A DNA stretch of 64,000 bases from Deltaproteobacteria bacterium (GTDB lineage: Bacteria; Desulfobacterota; Desulfomonilia; UBA1062), in the NCBI GenBank assembly GCA_029552245.1, contig JAKPDW010000017.1, positions 112,368 to 176,367 of the forward strand, in the 5' to 3' direction. Numbering within the stretch: position 1 is the stretch's first letter; each line of letters starts with the position of its first letter. The translations under genes and the position numbers were made by a program. Positions 10,779-29,002 of this stretch are shown here, piece by piece. The notes below the pieces were generated by a model that had not been told where the DNA came from, ran no database searches, and was given only the letters and a program-made list of their open reading frames with translations.

Positions 10779-12674
10779 ATGATCAGGCTGCTCTGTGTGG
10801 GCGCCTCGCTCGCGGGCCTGCTATGCCTCGCGCTCGCAGGGCTTCTCCCGTGGGTCGTGTTCGCGGCGCTCGCAGGCGTGCACCTTATGGTTCTCCGGTA
10901 TTTTTTCGACAGGGAGGTGATCTCCGCACCGGTTTCGCTCGCCCTCGTCGCCGTGGTCTCGAGTTGGAACGCGTGGAGGATCTTCGAGCACGGGGCGGAC
11001 GACGCCCTGTGGGCGGTGAGGGACCTCGTGGTGGCCATCGCCGTCGTGAGGCTGCTGTCGAGGAAGACCGGGCGCGAGATCCTCCAGATCCTCGGCATCG
11101 CGCTGTCCGAGGCGATCTTTGCCACCATCCTGACGCAGAGCGCCACGTTCCTTTTCGGCATGTGCTGCATGGCCCTGATCCTCCCCATGGCGCTCGACGC
11201 CGTTGACGCGGAGGAATTCAGGGCCCCGGTAAAGAGCGGGGCGGCGGGTGCACGACACTGGGCGCGCGTGTTCGCGGGTATCGTGTGCTCCTCCTGTGTC
11301 CTTTTCTACCTCCTGCCGAGGCCGGCGTCCCCCATCGTCCGCCACTCGCTCGTGCATGACAGGCGCCACACCTTCGGCGAGGACGTGGACCTCGGCTCGC
11401 AGGCCGCGCCCCCAGGCGATACGGCTGTCCTGATGCGCATCGTCTGGGATTCCCCCGACAGGCCCAAGAGCTTTTACCTGGCAGGGGCGAGGCTCGAGGT
11501 CATGACGCCCGACGGTTTCTTTCACGCCCCTGACGGTGACACAGCTCCAGGTGCCTCGCCTTGTGAGGCGAAACCCACGGACAGGCTTACCGTGTACCAG
11601 ACCGGGATCGACGCCAGGTACGTCTTTCACCCCTTCACCGTGTGCAGGGTGAGGCCGGCGGCGGTCCGCTCAGTCGGGCCGAACCTGTTCTGGCAATACG
11701 ACGTGCCGCTCAAGTACGATCTCTGGGTGACACGGACGCCTTTGTCGTCCGGTCCTGGTTCGAACACGGCCTTGCCCCCCGGCATGCAGGCGCTCGAGAG
11801 GCTCTCCTCGAGGGTCTCCGGTGAAGGCGGCCCCTCTGTCAGGATGGAACGACTCGCCCGCTACCTGAGATCGAGGTGCTCGTATTCCGATGCACCCCCA
11901 GCCAGGCCCTCCGGTGCAAGCGGCATAGAATGGTTCGTGTTCTCGGGCAGGGCGGGGACGTGTGAGCACTTCGCGGCGGCGCTCGCGGCCTTGGCCAGGG
12001 CCTCGGGCATCCCTGCGAGGGTGGTGAGCGGCTTTTTCGTGAGCGAATTCAACGAGGGAGGTGGATACTTCATCGTGCGGGCCTCGGACGCACACGCATG
12101 GGTCGAGTACCTCGACGGCGCATGGCTGACGGCTGATGCGACCCCGGGCGGAATCGGCCTGGAGAGACGCGGATTCCACCTCGTGGACAGGCTCAGGTTC
12201 CTCTGGGTGAGGTGGGTGGTGGAGTACAGCCTGGACGACCAGATCGACATCGCCTTCAAGACGTTCAGGATGGCCGGCCGATTCAAGGCCGACGTGCTCC
12301 GGGTCCCGTACAGGGCCCTTGCCGTGCCGATCGCCGCGGCAGCGATAGTCGCGTTGATCCAGGCGCTCAGGCGATCCAGGAGGGCCTGCCCGTATGCGAG
12401 CGTGATCCGTGCGTTCAGGACGATAGGGATCGTGCTCGACGAGTCCGTGCCGCACGAGCGTCACCTCGTCGAGGTCGGGAGGTTCGACGCCGGCCTGGGC
12501 GAAGCGTTCGCGACGTTTCTCGGGGAGTACCTCGCGTGGAGGTTCGGCGGCGGTAAGGTCGATATCGACGGCGCAACCAGGCGCATCGTACGGGCCATCA
12601 AGGCCCACAGGGCGCAAGGCCCAAGGAGACGCAGGGTCGGCAGCCGTCACCCGCATCGGGCTGGTTTTTCATAG
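10779..12674 (+). CDS. membrane transglutaminase-like protein (TgpA/DUF3488 type)
   Basis: About 631 residues. The N-terminal third has several hydrophobic helices (from MIRLLCVGASLAGLLCLALAGLLPWVVF), followed by a large soluble domain and one C-terminal membrane segment (LAVPIAAAAIVALIQ). The papain-like transglutaminase core is intact: Cys395 in RAGTCEHFAAAL, His439 in SDAHAWVEY, Asp453 in TADATP. Such proteins sit with MoxR and DUF58 genes and are thought to act on envelope proteins or peptides; the substrate is unknown. The start is uncertain: ATG 10779 lies just after the DUF58 stop, ATG 10746 overlaps it. Confidence 0.88.
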   Translation: MIRLLCVGASLAGLLCLALAGLLPWVVFAALAGVHLMVLRYFFDREVISAPVSLALVAVVSSWNAWRIFEHGADDALWAVRDLVVAIAVVRLLSRKTGREILQILGIALSEAIFATILTQSATFLFGMCCMALILPMALDAVDAEEFRAPVKSGAAGARHWARVFAGIVCSSCVLFYLLPRPASPIVRHSLVHDRRHTFGEDVDLGSQAAPPGDTAVLMRIVWDSPDRPKSFYLAGARLEVMTPDGFFHAPDGDTAPGASPCEAKPTDRLTVYQTGIDARYVFHPFTVCRVRPAAVRSVGPNLFWQYDVPLKYDLWVTRTPLSSGPGSNTALPPGMQALERLSSRVSGEGGPSVRMERLARYLRSRCSYSDAPPARPSGASGIEWFVFSGRAGTCEHFAAALAALARASGIPARVVSGFFVSEFNEGGGYFIVRASDAHAWVEYLDGAWLTADATPGGIGLERRGFHLVDRLRFLWVRWVVEYSLDDQIDIAFKTFRMAGRFKADVLRVPYRALAVPIAAAAIVALIQALRRSRRACPYASVIRAFRTIGIVLDESVPHERHLVEVGRFDAGLGEAFATFLGEYLAWRFGGGKVDIDGATRRIVRAIKAHRAQGPRRRRVGSRHPHRAGFS

Positions 12675-13054
12675 GCGACCGAGAACGCGACGTGCTTGGC
12701 CTTCACCTGGCGCCCCCGGCGATCGAGGCGTACCGGCAGGGCTCATGAAAGGCGCCTGGGACGCGGGCTCGCATGCCTCAAAAGGCCGCCCCGAGGATGA
12801 CGGTCCCGGCGGCGGTTTCCCAGGTTGCCGCTGCCGGGCTTGAACCTTTACGCGGACGGCCGGGGCATGTGCCCTCACGCCGCGGGAACACCAATGTTGG
12901 ACCGCCAGCTTGAACCTTTCTGTTCGGCCGGGTCGAGGGGCGGGTGAGGGCCGGGGCGCTCACGCCTGCGGGCAAGACCGCGACACCGTGTGCTCCCGGG
13001 GCGTCGCCACGAACCTGTGCGTGCCTTCCCCGAGAGGTGCGCCCCACTCTTGGG
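12675..13054. other. intergenic stretch with one paired repeat
   Basis: 380 bp between converging genes. Contains a two-copy element (12838/12908) and no believable ORF. No T-tailed hairpin is apparent. Confidence 0.5.
12838..12932. repeat. paired imperfect direct repeat, period 70 bp
   Basis: GCTTGAACCTTT occurs exactly at 12838 and 12908. It is followed in each copy, at slightly different spacing, by CGGCCGGG. Confidence 0.5.
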
Positions 13055-25456: not shown

Positions 25457-25706
25457 AGATCTCCCCTGCAGGCAAGGGGGAAACGTGTGGGGCGAAGTCC
25501 CGCCCGTCATGGATCACCTTCTCCACGCGAGCCACGGCTGTGAAGCACCGTGTTCCTTCAGTCGTGAGATGCCTGCAGTCCTCGAGCCAGGCCTCCAGGC
25601 AGGCGCGCCTTGGCCGGCCCACGGCGTGACGGAAGCATGAAACAGGTTTACAACCAGGGTGTTTTCGCACATAAATGGGAGAAAAGACGATCCGGGAGGT
25701 ATCACC

Positions 25707-26351
25707 GTGGTTGCCGACATCATCAAGGAGATATTCTCACACAACGCCGCGTTCGCATCGAGCCGTGACGAGCGATACTTCGGGGCGCACATGAAGGCCC
25801 AGCACCCCAAGATCACCCTGGTCTGTTGCTGCGATGCGAGGGTGCATGCCACCGTCATCGCCCCGGACCCCATCGACAGGGTCTTCACCATCGAGACCAT
25901 CGGCAATCAGATGGCATCCGCCCAGGGGTCGGTGGATTACGGGGTGCTTCATCTCCACACGCCCCTCTTGCTCATCCTCGGCCACACCGACTGCGGCGCC
26001 GTGAAGGCCTTCATGAAGGGGTACGAGCAGGAAAACGAGGCCATACGGAGGGAGCTCGACCATCTCAAGGAGACCATCCCGACCCCCGGTACGGGAAGTT
26101 TCGAGGAGGCGCTCGTGGCCAACGTGAAGCAGAACGTGTTGAGGCAGGTCGACAAGGCCCTCGAGCGTTACCGTGCACTCGTCGAGGAGGGCAGGCTCAC
26201 GGTTATGGGCGCGGTGTACGACTTCACCGGTGAGTTCGGCAAGGGGCTCGGAAAAGTCTCGATCCTGAGCGTCAACGGGAAGACCGATCCCGCAGAGCTC
26301 GCTTCCATGCCCCAGCTTGCAGGCCTGGACCTCGGGAATTGTCTTGCGTAG
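25707..26351 (+). CDS. beta-class carbonic anhydrase
   Basis: 214 residues. It hydrates CO2 reversibly. The zinc and catalytic residues are in CCDARV (Cys41-x-Asp43-x-Arg45) and HTDCGAV (His93, Cys96), the beta-class pattern; TIGNQMASA matches the conserved RNAGN region but with Gly-Asn retained and Arg lost. No signal peptide, so cytoplasmic. GTG 25707 with GGGAGGT 6 nt upstream is preferred to an ATG further upstream (25659) without a site. It probably supplies bicarbonate for carboxylations such as the acetyl-CoA carboxylase encoded at 42 kb. A hairpin closes the gene. Confidence 0.88.
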   Translation: MVADIIKEIFSHNAAFASSRDERYFGAHMKAQHPKITLVCCCDARVHATVIAPDPIDRVFTIETIGNQMASAQGSVDYGVLHLHTPLLLILGHTDCGAVKAFMKGYEQENEAIRRELDHLKETIPTPGTGSFEEALVANVKQNVLRQVDKALERYRALVEEGRLTVMGAVYDFTGEFGKGLGKVSILSVNGKTDPAELASMPQLAGLDLGNCLA

Positions 26352-26376
26352 GACACGGGCAAGGCCTGCCCGTGTC
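26352..26376 (+). terminator. hairpin after the carbonic anhydrase gene
   Basis: GACACGGGCA / TGCCCGTGTC, 10 perfect pairs with a 5-nt loop, directly after the stop codon. It is followed by AGGGGG, not T, so its termination strength is doubtful. Confidence 0.45.
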
Positions 26377-26409
26377 AGGGGGTGTTCCGGCAAGAGGATG
26401 GGTGGTGTC

Positions 26410-26799
26410 GTGACGCTCGCCGAGCTGAAGGATATCCTGGAGGCGGAGGTGGTATCGGGTCACGAAAGGCTCGATGAGATCGTCTCCGGCGCCTTCTGCG
26501 CGGACCTCATGAGCGACGTCCTCTCGTTCGCAAAGCCCGGCTGCGTCCTCATCACCGGCCTTGCGAACCTCCAGGCCCTGAGGACCGCCTATGCGCTCGA
26601 TCTGGGTGCGGTGATCGTATGCAGGGGGAAGGCCCTCCCGGAAGGTTTCGTGGATGCCGCCCGGGATCTCGGCATACCCGTTCTCAGGACGCGCCTCATC
26701 ATGTTCGAGGCGAGCGGCAGGCTCTGGATGGCGGGTGTCGAACCCAGCGCGAGAGAAAGAAGAGGAAAGTCAGAGGTAGTCTCCGATGCAACTGCATGA
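26410..26799 (+). CDS. DRTGG-domain protein (first of two)
   Basis: 129 residues from GTG 26410 (VTLAELKDILEAEVVSG). Resembles the DRTGG domain, an alpha/beta fold also found beside HPr kinase and CBS domains. Shares with the protein at 27.3 kb the pattern LxSDV...G...T....A...A..L.A.V.V.G...A...GIP...T...FE, so the two are paralogues. The start is uncertain: ATG 26398 lies directly on AAGAGG with no spacing, and GTG 26410 is 12 nt from it. First gene of a five-gene module. DRTGG proteins of this kind usually stand next to [FeFe]-hydrogenase genes; their biochemical role is not established. Confidence 0.78.
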   Translation: MTLAELKDILEAEVVSGHERLDEIVSGAFCADLMSDVLSFAKPGCVLITGLANLQALRTAYALDLGAVIVCRGKALPEGFVDAARDLGIPVLRTRLIMFEASGRLWMAGVEPSARERRGKSEVVSDATA

Positions 26800-27259
26800 A
26801 GACGAGAGATATCTCCAGGGTCGCTACGAAGTCCAGGGAAGGGACTTCGTCGATGCAGGCCTCGTCTCGAGCCTCATCAAGAAGGCCCTCAAGGACAAGG
26901 GCATCGACGAGGACGTGATCAGGAGAGTGGCCATCGTGGCGTTCGAGGCCGAAGTCAACATCATCTCTTACGCCGAGTCCGGGACCATCAGCCTCTACCT
27001 CCTGCCGGACTCGGTGGTCTTCGAGGCGAAAGACGTCGGTCCCGGCATCGCTGACATCGAGCTCGCCCTCCAGGAGGGGTACTCGACGGCGGACGACACG
27101 ATCAGGGAAATGGGATTCGGAGCGGGGATGGGCCTGTCGAACATCAAGAAATCCTCAGATGTCTTCGAGATCTCTTCGGAAGTCGGCAAAGGCACGTGCT
27201 TGAGGAGCGTGATCAGGCTCGATGGAGGCGAAACGCCTGGAGAGGGGGATGGTCGATGA
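26786..27259 (+). CDS. anti-sigma-factor-type ATP-binding protein (HATPase)
   Basis: 157 residues with a GHKL ATPase fold like RsbW/SpoIIAB: RVAIVAFEAEVNIISYAESG (N-box with the catalytic E-x-x-x-N), KDVGPGIADIE (G1 box) and MGFGAGMGLSNIKKSSD (G2 box). It is a single kinase-like domain without a phospho-acceptor histidine, so it may phosphorylate a serine/threonine on a partner or simply bind nucleotide. It overlaps the DRTGG gene by 14 nt, and the same pairing is repeated downstream, which suggests the DRTGG protein is its partner. Confidence 0.85.
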   Translation: MQLHEDERYLQGRYEVQGRDFVDAGLVSSLIKKALKDKGIDEDVIRRVAIVAFEAEVNIISYAESGTISLYLLPDSVVFEAKDVGPGIADIELALQEGYSTADDTIREMGFGAGMGLSNIKKSSDVFEISSEVGKGTCLRSVIRLDGGETPGEGDGR

Positions 27260-27327
27260 CCGTCAGGGCGGGGGGCGATCGCCCATCTTCGGCCGGCACC
27301 ATACCACGCGGCTCACCGGGAGGTGAC

Positions 27328-27672
27328 ATGAACCTGGACACTTTGGCGAAACGGCTCGACCTTTCCTGCAAGTGTTGCTGGGAGAAGCTGAACAGGGAGG
27401 TCACGGGCGGATACACCGGGGATCTCCTGAGCGATGTCATGGCCAACAGCAAGGCCGGGGACATATGGGTGACCAGGCAGGTCCACAAGAACGTGGTCGC
27501 CGTGGCGGCCCTCAAGGAGCACGCGGCCGTCGTGGTCGTCCAGGGTGCCGAGCCCGACGTCGACGCCTTGGAGAAGGCCACGGCGGAAGGAATCCCGATC
27601 TTCACGACGAACAAGAGCGCCTTCGAGATCACCGGGCTCATCCACGGCCTTCTCCGCGAGGACAAGGCCTGA
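27328..27672 (+). CDS. DRTGG-like domain protein (second of two)
   Basis: 114 residues. Paralogue of the protein encoded at 26.4 kb, but with a cysteine cluster near the N-terminus (LSCKCCWEKL) that could bind metal or a cluster; that is inference. Core: YTGDLLSDVMANSKAGDIWVTRQVHKNVVAVAAL. ATG 27328 has GGGAGGTGAC immediately upstream. In other genomes I recall this protein next to PHP-domain and hydrogenase genes. Its neighbours here are the PHP and second HATPase genes. Confidence 0.78.
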   Translation: MNLDTLAKRLDLSCKCCWEKLNREVTGGYTGDLLSDVMANSKAGDIWVTRQVHKNVVAVAALKEHAAVVVVQGAEPDVDALEKATAEGIPIFTTNKSAFEITGLIHGLLREDKA

Positions 27673-27705
27673 AGAGGGCTTGGGCCCATAACCCCGAGAG
27701 AGACC

Positions 27706-28443
27706 ATGGGAAGGGTGTACCGCTGCAACCTCCATATCCACACGTGCCTCTCGCCGTGCGGCAGCCTTGACATGCATCCCGCATCGATCGTGAGCGCATG
27801 CAGGGATGCAGGGCTCGACATGATAGCCGTGACCGATCACAACGCCTCGGAGAACGTCAGGTACGTGCAGGAGGCGGCGCGCAAGACCGGTCTCGTGGTG
27901 ATCCCGGGCATGGAGCTCTGCACCCGGGAGGAGGTGCACATCCTCGCCCTGTTCGAGCGCCTGGACCAGCTCGAGGCCCTGCAGGACATCGTGTACGAAC
28001 ACTTGAGCGGGGTGAACGACGAGCGGGTCTTCGGCGTCCAGGCTGTGGTCAACGAGCACGGGGAGGTGGAAGGGTTCAACGAGCACCTCCTCATCGCGGC
28101 CACCGAGTTGTCCCTGGAAGACGCCGTGCGTCACATACACGGGCTTGACGGTCTCGCGGTCCCCTCTCACATCGACAGGACGGCCTTCGGGGTGATAGGA
28201 CAGCTCGGTTTCGTCCCGAACGACGTGCCGTTCGACGCCCTCGAGGTGTCCTGCAGGATGGGGGTGAAGCAGGCGCGCAGGGAATACCCTGAACTCGCCG
28301 GCTACACGATGATCACCTCTTCGGACGCCCACGAACTCGTGGACATCGGCAGGGCATGCACCCGCTTCTTCATCGATTCCCCCACGTTTCCGGAGATCCG
28401 CCTGGCCTTCAAGAAGAGCCTCGGAAGGTATTGCCTGGAGTGA
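27706..28443 (+). CDS. PHP-domain metal-dependent phosphoesterase
   Basis: 245 residues. PHP fold with metal ligands in NLHIHTCLSPCG, AVTDHNASEN, PGMELCTREEVHILAL, VPSHIDR and SSDAHE. Related proteins hydrolyse phosphate esters such as histidinol phosphate or nucleotide 3'-phosphates, but the ones in DRTGG/hydrogenase neighbourhoods are uncharacterised. No signal peptide. It stands between the second DRTGG gene and the second HATPase gene with gaps under 40 bp, consistent with one transcript. Confidence 0.88.
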   Translation: MGRVYRCNLHIHTCLSPCGSLDMHPASIVSACRDAGLDMIAVTDHNASENVRYVQEAARKTGLVVIPGMELCTREEVHILALFERLDQLEALQDIVYEHLSGVNDERVFGVQAVVNEHGEVEGFNEHLLIAATELSLEDAVRHIHGLDGLAVPSHIDRTAFGVIGQLGFVPNDVPFDALEVSCRMGVKQARREYPELAGYTMITSSDAHELVDIGRACTRFFIDSPTFPEIRLAFKKSLGRYCLE

Positions 28444-28447
28444 AACC

Positions 28448-29002
28448 ATGTTGGAATTGGCTCTCCACGTGCTCGATATCGTCGAGAACTCGGCCAGGGC
28501 CGGCGCGACCCTCGTGAAGATCAGCGTGGTGGAGGATCTCGAAGGGGACGTCCTCTCGATACGGATCGAGGACAACGGCGCCGGCATGGACGAGGAGACG
28601 AGGGCGCGCGCGCTCGACCCCTTCTATACGACCAAGAAGGTCAGGCGCATAGGCCTGGGCCTCCCCATGCTCAAGGACGCGGCCGAGCGTGCCGGGGGGA
28701 CGTTCAGCCTGGACTCCGAGCCGTCGAAGGGCACCGTGGTGCACGCCACGTTCAGGCACACCCACATAGACCGGCAGCCGCTCGGCGACATGGCAGGCGT
28801 CATCGCTGCGATCATGCTCGGGAACCCTCACATGGACATCGTCTACACCCATAGCAGGGGAGGGCGGAGCTACGAGCTCGACACCCGGGAAATACGGGAG
28901 GGGCTGGGCGGCGTGGCGTTGAACGAGCCCGAGGTTGTCAGGCTGGTTCGCGAGAACGTGAGGGAGTCCCTCCTGGAGATCGGCGCAGGGAATACTCCTT
29001 GA
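28448..29002 (+). CDS. HATPase-domain protein of the DRTGG/PHP module
   Basis: 184 residues. Starts MLELALHVLDIVENSARAGA (N-box E-x-x-x-N), then IEDNGAGMDEE (G1), LDPFYTTKKVRRIGLGLPMLKDAAE (G2 region). No phospho-acceptor domain or receiver. The C-terminal 70 residues (GDMAGVIAAIMLGNPHMDIVYTHSRGG...) are outside the ATPase fold and conserved-looking. Starts 4 bp after the PHP gene. Likely a nucleotide-binding or protein-kinase-like regulator; target unknown. The rplU promoter starts inside its last codons. Confidence 0.82.
   Translation: MLELALHVLDIVENSARAGATLVKISVVEDLEGDVLSIRIEDNGAGMDEETRARALDPFYTTKKVRRIGLGLPMLKDAAERAGGTFSLDSEPSKGTVVHATFRHTHIDRQPLGDMAGVIAAIMLGNPHMDIVYTHSRGGRSYELDTREIREGLGGVALNEPEVVRLVRENVRESLLEIGAGNTP

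What the first reader, a model, noticed from the sequence alone, without database searches (positions are those of the whole stretch)
26352..29002. DRTGG-HATPase-DRTGG-PHP-HATPase module without hydrogenase genes
Five tightly packed genes: two paralogous DRTGG proteins, each followed by a GHKL ATPase (the second after a PHP phosphoesterase). I recall these families from the neighbourhood of electron-bifurcating [FeFe]-hydrogenases in other anaerobes, but here no hydrogenase, NuoE/NuoF or ferredoxin gene lies on either side: carbonic anhydrase upstream and the rplU operon downstream. The module may be a general nucleotide- or redox-sensing regulatory unit that has been detached, or acts on a hydrogenase elsewhere. 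The CKCC cluster in only one DRTGG copy hints at metal or redox sensing.
Basis: partly seen in the sequence, partly recalled or inferred. Interest (0 to 1): 0.62.

Follow-up and report, generated by a model that had tools for sequence, protein, structure and literature searches.

The report
Switch genes of electron-bifurcating enzymes, relocated
Five small genes that look like an ATP-driven on/off switch normally sit beside enzymes that split the electrons of NADH and ferredoxin (hydrogenases, formate dehydrogenases, even a form of respiratory complex I); in this bacterium the set has moved away from its enzyme, which lies on another contig.

Summary
In detail: carbonic anhydrase (CA), DRTGG1, GHKL ATPase HAT1, DRTGG2, PHP, GHKL ATPase HAT2, then rplU, with no hydrogenase, NuoE/F or formate dehydrogenase gene in the 64-kb window. 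All five are intact and conserved.

The interpretation needs correcting. The set is not a hydrogenase module as such. In related genomes it lies beside NuoE-ferredoxin-NuoF genes of the electron-bifurcating "BfuABC" type, whatever the third partner: formate dehydrogenase (17 loci), complex I (12), [FeFe]-hydrogenase (7), [NiFe]-hydrogenase (7). Across 148 genomes of the phylum all 30 with the module have a BfuB-type protein; only 5 have catalytic HydA (no association, P=0.54).

This genome's single BfuB lies on another contig in an intact hydABC-formate dehydrogenase cluster. Synteny shows that CA plus module once stood near that cluster and moved away.

Elsewhere a putative sensory hydrogenase or a CBS pair is inserted or fused in. 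A DRTGG paralogue also follows nfnAB in 17 of 17 family genomes that have it. CKCC is not conserved.

Best explanation: a nucleotide/redox-sensing GHKL-kinase/PHP-phosphatase switch for electron-bifurcating NADH enzymes. Linkage is shown; mechanism is inferred.

The parts
25659..26351 (+). beta-class carbonic anhydrase (Pro_CA); keeps company with the module in the genus and in three other genera
   Evidence: Pfam PF00484 E=3e-24; CA-module order in L034, L035, L045, L047, L060
26410..26799 (+). DRTGG1: stand-alone DRTGG-domain protein
   Evidence: Pfam PF07085; model pLDDT 93.8, best solved match AF1212 DRTGG Z 17.6, then the CBS-DRTGG region of C. perfringens pyrophosphatase Z 14.8
26786..27259 (+). 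HAT1: GHKL ATPase of the SpoIIAB/anti-sigma kinase type
   Evidence: Profile hits anti-sigma F factor SpoIIAB at E=5e-9; E54...N58, D83-x-G-x-G and GxGxGxG invariant in 59/59
27328..27672 (+). DRTGG2: second, paralogous DRTGG protein, with the CKCC that is not conserved
   Evidence: D32, L33, S35, T49, H53 and N55 invariant in 75/75, CKCC not
27706..28443 (+). PHP-family phosphoesterase, all metal-ligand motifs intact
   Evidence: Pfam PF02811/PF13263; H10, H12, D44, H45, E70, H78, H155, D207, H209 invariant in 80/80; nearest solved relatives are an exoribonuclease, phosphoesterases and endonuclease Q
28448..29002 (+). HAT2: second GHKL ATPase, MutL/GyrB-like fold including its C-terminal extension
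   Evidence: Pfam PF02518; model pLDDT 90.9; MutL ATPase Z 13.3 over 144 residues, rmsd 2.8; D10...N14, DxGxG, GxG, H106-x-D108 invariant in 73/73

Best explanation
The five genes are the companion regulatory module of BfuABC-type (HydABC/NuoEF-type) flavin-based electron-bifurcating NADH enzymes, and in this species the module has been relocated, with a carbonic anhydrase, away from its target. SHOWN: the conserved five-gene unit, its linkage to NuoE-Fd-BfuB independent of the third subunit, and the relocation. INFERRED: how it works. DRTGG1 and DRTGG2 (where present also CBS domains or a sensory hydrogenase) read the adenine-nucleotide, redox or H2 state. This controls HAT1, a SpoIIAB/RsbT-like Ser/Thr kinase, and HAT2, a second GHKL ATPase with an acidic residue at the general-base position. 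The phosphoryl or nucleotide signal they make is removed by the PHP phosphoesterase. The output throttles the bifurcating enzyme, probably at the shared NuoE/ferredoxin/NuoF part, because that is the only part common to all linked enzymes. In this organism the only candidate target is the hydABC-formate dehydrogenase cluster on C58. Rough odds: linkage and relocation 0.9; kinase/phosphatase control of the enzyme rather than another role 0.4-0.5.
For: Linkage: PHP orthologues in 37 of 41 genomes of own family and class; neighbourhoods. In 44 loci with 4 kb on both sides, 38 have all five genes and 33 have BfuB on the same strand, mostly about 1.5 kb from PHP. Of 23 module genomes whose PHP and BfuB places were compared, 21 have them 2-14 kb apart, one 27 kb, and only this genome has them on different contigs. 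BfuB is the bifurcating form, with N-terminal 2Fe-2S and C-terminal ferredoxin domains where not fused to GltD; the Bfu family is as defined in PMC9304861. The third subunit changes; own genome has one BfuB. Relocation: genes bordering CA-module in G002 and G004 are on own C58:138.5-142.9 kb, about 10 kb past own FdhA; in G010 the orthologue of the transporter that follows own FdhA stands next to CA-module; the IcmF gene that follows the module in relatives is on own C27. Function: invariant catalytic motifs, SpoIIAB match, DRTGG match to the AMP/Ap4A-responsive regulatory region of a pyrophosphatase, CBS-HAT1 and HydS-DRTGG fusions, separate DRTGG behind nfnAB.
Against: No phosphorylation, binding or expression data. 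HAT2's fold is closer to MutL/GyrB ATPases than to kinases, which would also suit an assembly factor. Accessory genes of one bifurcating NiFe-hydrogenase operon did not co-purify with the enzyme and were only 'assumed' to serve maturation and/or regulation (PMC8880783). Most BfuB-bearing genomes lack the module (82 of 112), and G003 of the same genus has the hyd-Fdh cluster but no module PHP was found in its 91% complete assembly, so it is not required for Bfu function. Counts are not corrected for shared ancestry.
Confidence: 0.55

Rival explanations
1. Maturation or assembly unit: HAT2 and HAT1 are ATP-driven clamps that help to assemble or repair the FMN/Fe-S-rich NuoE-NuoF core, with PHP and DRTGG proteins as helpers.
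For: The only part common to all targets is the NuoE-Fd-NuoF core. HAT2 resembles MutL/GyrB-type ATPases over its whole length. Feng et al. left 'maturation and/or regulation' open for HydD, HydP and HisK (PMC8880783).
Against: Most BfuB-bearing genomes lack the module. Sensor-type partners (HydS-like protein, CBS pair) are fused or inserted, which fits signalling better. HAT1 is closest to the kinase SpoIIAB.
Confidence: 0.22
2. Nucleotide second-messenger circuit: PHP makes or destroys a nucleotide signal (for example Ap4A, pAp or a linear dinucleotide) that DRTGG and CBS domains bind, without protein phosphorylation.
For: Nearest named PHP relatives act on nucleotides or RNA (3',5'-nucleoside bisphosphate phosphatase, RNase; exoribonuclease, endonuclease Q). 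Best DRTGG matches include an AMP/Ap4A-regulated pyrophosphatase.
Against: In that pyrophosphatase the nucleotides are described as binding the CBS domains, not DRTGG. Two GHKL ATPases would remain unexplained.
Confidence: 0.15
3. Partner-switching transcription control: HAT1 works like an anti-sigma factor and the unit sets expression of the Bfu operon.
For: HAT1 is a SpoIIAB relative. Sensory hydrogenases in such operons are assumed to control expression (PMC10055695).
Against: No STAS anti-anti-sigma or sigma factor gene was recognised in the neighbourhoods read.
Confidence: 0.12
4. Relic: a hydrogen-sensing module that lost its sensor (HydS) and no longer works in this lineage.
For: About 20 of 108 loci carry a HydS-like gene in the module and this lineage does not.
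Against: All catalytic motifs are intact here and in hydrogenase-free relatives; the five-gene order is kept.
Confidence: 0.05

Closest known systems
BfuABC / HydABC family accessory genes (for example HydD, HydP, HisK of the Acetomicrobium mobile NiFe-HydABCSL operon, PMC8880783)
   Same: Small accessory genes, one called HisK, in a bifurcating-enzyme operon, assumed to serve maturation or regulation.
   Different: The paper text read names three extra genes and tests none. Whether HisK and HydP are HAT2 and PHP was not checked by sequence. Here a five-gene set, linked to at least four enzyme kinds, can stand apart from its enzyme.
Putative sensory [FeFe]-hydrogenases HydS (groups C and D) with neighbouring HK-like ATPase
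   Same: In about 20 of 108 loci a HydS-like protein (PF02906 plus Fe-S domains) lies in the module. [quoted passage not shown]
   Different: The window's module has no HydS, and 11 of 30 module genomes of the phylum have no PF02906 protein at all.
SpoIIAB/RsbT-type GHKL serine kinases with partner switching
   Same: HAT1: sequence match to SpoIIAB with the E-x3-N and D-x-G-x-G boxes.
   Different: No STAS partner; DRTGG proteins and a PHP enzyme instead.
CBS-DRTGG regulatory region of family II pyrophosphatase (3l2b, 3l31)
   Same: DRTGG fold; CBS pair in front of HAT1 in other genomes.
   Different: Here DRTGG is a stand-alone protein and the effector is a GHKL ATPase set.

Membership tests
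Hydrogenase-specific accessory module | Occurs with [FeFe]-hydrogenase | tested here: not met
   5 of 30 module genomes have catalytic HydA against 14 of 118 others, P=0.54; G004 and G007 have the module and no PF02906 protein
BfuABC (bifurcating NuoEF-type) accessory module | Bfu core present in the genome | tested here: met
   30 of 30 module genomes have BfuB at E<=1e-150; this genome has exactly one, on C58
BfuABC (bifurcating NuoEF-type) accessory module | Genes adjacent to the Bfu operon | tested here: not met
Filed as a module that works for Bfu, not as a Bfu operon member here.
PHP phosphoesterase | Metal-ligand motifs HxH, DH, E, H, H, DxH | tested here: met
   Invariant in 80/80 orthologues
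DRTGG domain | Sequence profile and fold | tested here: met
   DRTGG1 over the Pfam cut-off, model matches AF1212 DRTGG Z 17.6, 113 residues, rmsd 1.8; DRTGG2 just under the cut-off
GHKL Ser/Thr kinase of SpoIIAB type | GHKL boxes with Glu four residues before the N-box Asn | tested here: met
   HAT1 E54/N58 in 59/59; alignment to SpoIIAB
GHKL Ser/Thr kinase of SpoIIAB type | Phosphorylates a partner protein | not testable with these tools
   Needs biochemistry
HydS sensory hydrogenase system | HydS gene in the module | tested here: not met
   The genome has one PF02906 protein, the catalytic HydA; none in the window
Histidine kinase (two-component) | DHp domain with phospho-accepting His and a response regulator next to it | tested here: not met
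   HAT1 and HAT2 are short proteins of 157 and 184 aa with only the GHKL domain recognised; no regulator gene beside them

The most novel reading that the evidence does not exclude
A dedicated post-translational control system, built of DRTGG sensors, two GHKL kinases/ATPases and a PHP phosphatase, governs flavin-based electron bifurcation as such: it serves hydrogenase, formate dehydrogenase and a ferredoxin-coupled complex I alike, with exchangeable sensors (H2 through HydS, adenine nucleotides through CBS), and a single DRTGG part serves NfnAB.
Probability: 0.35. Interest if true: 0.85.

Novelty: new variant of a known kind. Interest (0 to 1): 0.62.

Why it matters
How anaerobes switch NADH/ferredoxin bifurcating enzymes, which run close to equilibrium in both directions, is largely open, and regulatory genes beside them have been noted without function. 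Finding one gene set linked to hydrogenase, formate dehydrogenase and complex I forms of the same core points to control at the shared NuoE/NuoF part and makes it testable in one knock-out. It also warns against reading these families as hydrogenase markers.

Tried and rejected
Hydrogenase specificity: rejected by co-occurrence. CKCC as a conserved metal/redox site: rejected. A hydrogenase, NuoEF or ferredoxin gene hidden in the window: none found. Second complete module in the genome: only an extra DRTGG paralogue beside nfnAB; one full-length HAT2. Promoters and terminators: nothing above chance. Literature: searches for these families with hydrogenases gave no paper describing the five-gene set; 'DRTGG' occurs in 15 held papers, none about bifurcating enzymes judged by title and abstract; subscription journals are mostly not held. 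The Ruminococcus albus HydS paper was not held. Complex prediction of DRTGG-HATPase pairs could not be run (monomers only).
Full report
1. What is there. The five genes are real and in the order stated: DRTGG1 26410-26799, HAT1 26786-27259, DRTGG2 27328-27672, PHP 27706-28443, HAT2 28448-29002, preceded by a beta-carbonic anhydrase (25659-26351) and followed by rplU-rpmA-obgE-proB. Pfam and NCBIfam give the families. A profile scan of all six frames of the 64-kb window finds no NuoE, NuoF, HydA, FdhA, NuoD or NuoH relative.

2. The hydrogenase elsewhere. The draft genome (3.27 Mb, 95 contigs, 99% complete) has one PF02906 protein, on contig C58. It lies in an intact cluster NuoE, 2Fe-2S ferredoxin, NuoF fused to a GltD-like part, HydA, TM1266-type regulator (TIGR03959), HydG, HydE, AspA, HydF, formate dehydrogenase. 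The only BfuB-type protein of the genome at E<=1e-150 is in this cluster. From the contig lengths the module (C53) and this cluster (C58) are at least about 69 kb apart.

3. What the module travels with. Full-length PHP orthologues are in 37 of 41 genomes of the family and class, but PF02906 in only 9. In most genomes of the same family the module stands downstream of NuoE-Fd-NuoF/GltD-FdhA and a formate or oxalate/formate transporter. In a second family of the class the same five genes are interleaved in a complex I operon: DRTGG1, CBS-CBS-HAT1, nuoABCD, DRTGG2, PHP, HAT2, nuoE, Fd, nuoF, nuoG, nuoH, nuoI, nuoJ. The NuoF there has the N-terminal 2Fe-2S and C-terminal 2x[4Fe-4S] domains of bifurcating BfuB, as expected for the 'Nuo-Bfu' of Schut et al. 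(PMC9304861).

4. Wider survey. A scan of the GTDB species genomes with the PHP alignment brought 80 named loci from Deltaproteobacteria, Nitrospirae, Cloacimonadota, Aminicenantes, Neomarinimicrobiota, KSB1, Clostridiales and others. DRTGG2 is in 75, HAT2 in 78, HAT1 in 63, DRTGG1 in 61, BfuB in 58. Of 44 loci with at least 4 kb on both sides, 38 have the whole five-gene set and 33 have BfuB on the same strand. Over 108 non-redundant loci the third part of the enzyme is formate dehydrogenase in 17, complex I in 12, [FeFe] HydA in 7, NiFe hydrogenase in 7; in 40 the Bfu core is seen but the third part is not, and in 25 no Bfu gene is in reach, many because contigs end.

5. Co-occurrence. In 148 genomes of the phylum (at least 90% complete) PHP of this family is in 30. 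Catalytic HydA is in 5 of these 30 and in 14 of the other 118 (P=0.54). Any PF02906 protein is in 19 of 30 against 21 of 118, largely because HydS-like proteins sit in the module itself. BfuB is in 30 of 30 against 82 of 118 (P=9e-5). These P values ignore shared ancestry; the adjacency is the stronger evidence: in 21 of 23 genomes compared PHP and BfuB are 2-14 kb apart, in G004 27 kb, and only in this genome on different contigs.

6. Relocation. In two species of the genus the module is bordered by genes (four in G004, three in G002) whose orthologues in this genome lie at C58:138.5-142.9 kb, about 10 kb past the formate dehydrogenase. In G010 the orthologue of the transporter behind this genome's FdhA stands directly beside CA-module; in G005 the order is FdhA-FocA-CA-module. 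The IcmF gene that follows the module in relatives is on this genome's C27. So CA plus module left the Hyd/Fdh region and landed before rplU in this species. G004 has lost HydA and keeps a HydF remnant (about 78 aligned residues) between NuoF/GltD and FdhA, yet keeps the module: in this genus the module outlives the hydrogenase. The reverse also occurs: in G003 the hyd-Fdh cluster was found but no module PHP (91% complete).

7. Inputs. In about 20 loci a HydS-like protein of about 445 aa (PF02906, N-terminal ferredoxin domain, C-terminal FeS domain, four H-cluster cysteines kept in those read) lies in the module, usually between HAT1 and DRTGG2, and in L085 it is fused to DRTGG1. In 19 loci a CBS pair accompanies HAT1, fused to it where examined. 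These exchangeable parts look like sensors for H2 and for adenine nucleotides (inference).

8. Anatomy. PHP keeps all metal ligands in 80/80 orthologues; HAT1 keeps E54, N58, DxGxG and the glycine-rich box in 59/59; HAT2 keeps D10, N14, DxGxG, GxG and an H-x-D after the ATPase core in 73/73; the Ser of the DLxSDV motif is kept in 64/65 DRTGG1 and 75/75 DRTGG2; the CKCC is not kept. HAT1 matches SpoIIAB. The HAT2 model (pLDDT 90.9) matches MutL and GyrB ATPase domains over 126-153 residues (Z 11-13), i.e. including its C-terminal part; its sequence alone is closest to histidine-kinase ATPase domains. The DRTGG1 model (pLDDT 93.8) matches AF1212 (Z 17.6) and the CBS-DRTGG regulatory region of a pyrophosphatase (Z 14.8) that is inhibited by AMP and activated by Ap4A.

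9. A second clue. A stand-alone DRTGG paralogue (51% identical to DRTGG1) lies on C49 right behind nfnAB, the other electron-bifurcating NADH enzyme. The pair NfnB-DRTGG is found in all 17 family genomes where the paralogue was found, including three in which the module PHP was not found. Together with the fusions this ties DRTGG proteins to bifurcating NAD(P)H/ferredoxin enzymes more widely.

10. Explanation. The linkage and relocation are shown. The mechanism is inferred: sensors (DRTGG, CBS, HydS) - GHKL kinases (HAT1, HAT2) - PHP phosphoesterase - control of the Bfu core. The main rival, an assembly or repair unit, cannot be excluded, and HAT2's MutL-like fold is compatible with it. In published work the nearest statements are that extra genes HydD, HydP and HisK in a NiFe-Bfu operon are assumed to serve maturation and/or regulation (PMC8880783), and that a HydS gene lies beside an HK-like ATPase (PMC8163306). 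No held paper found here connects DRTGG proteins with bifurcating enzymes.

11. Verdict. Observation confirmed; interpretation partly supported and re-aimed from hydrogenase to the bifurcating NuoE/NuoF core. New variant of a known kind; interest 0.62.

Noticed in passing
L153 2786-5520 (G000 C49) and L156-L172: A DRTGG1-type paralogue lies about 30 nt behind nfnB of the electron-bifurcating NfnAB in this genome and in all 16 relatives where it was found (62-88% identity).
   Followed up: partly
L002 17418-19501, L041 3992-6817: The formate dehydrogenase gene is interrupted by an in-frame TGA in NNVDHCARL-TGA-HSSTV, as expected for a selenocysteine enzyme.
   Followed up: no
L002 6971-10012: BfuB (NuoF) is fused to a GltD/NfnB-like part (1013 aa) in this family and many other genomes, in place of the usual C-terminal ferredoxin domain.
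   Followed up: partly
L147 (G004 C12), about 12490-12723: Remnant of hydF (78 aligned residues) between NuoF/GltD and FdhA where hydA-hydG-hydE-aspA are missing; the module is kept.
   Followed up: partly
L085 1437-3086: One protein fuses a HydS-like putative sensory hydrogenase to a DRTGG domain.
   Followed up: yes
L149 12549-18016 (G044): Module plus BfuBC followed by a molybdopterin-type BfuA, EtfB, EtfA and an acyl-CoA dehydrogenase: possibly a further kind of Bfu partner.
   Followed up: no
L110, L120, L126: Module with HydS-like gene and BfuABC followed by MvhD-like and NiFe-hydrogenase small and large subunits.
   Followed up: partly
L152 14500-20000 (G002 C95): A second cluster of HydA-, NuoF- and NuoE-like genes next to the hyd operon.
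   Followed up: no
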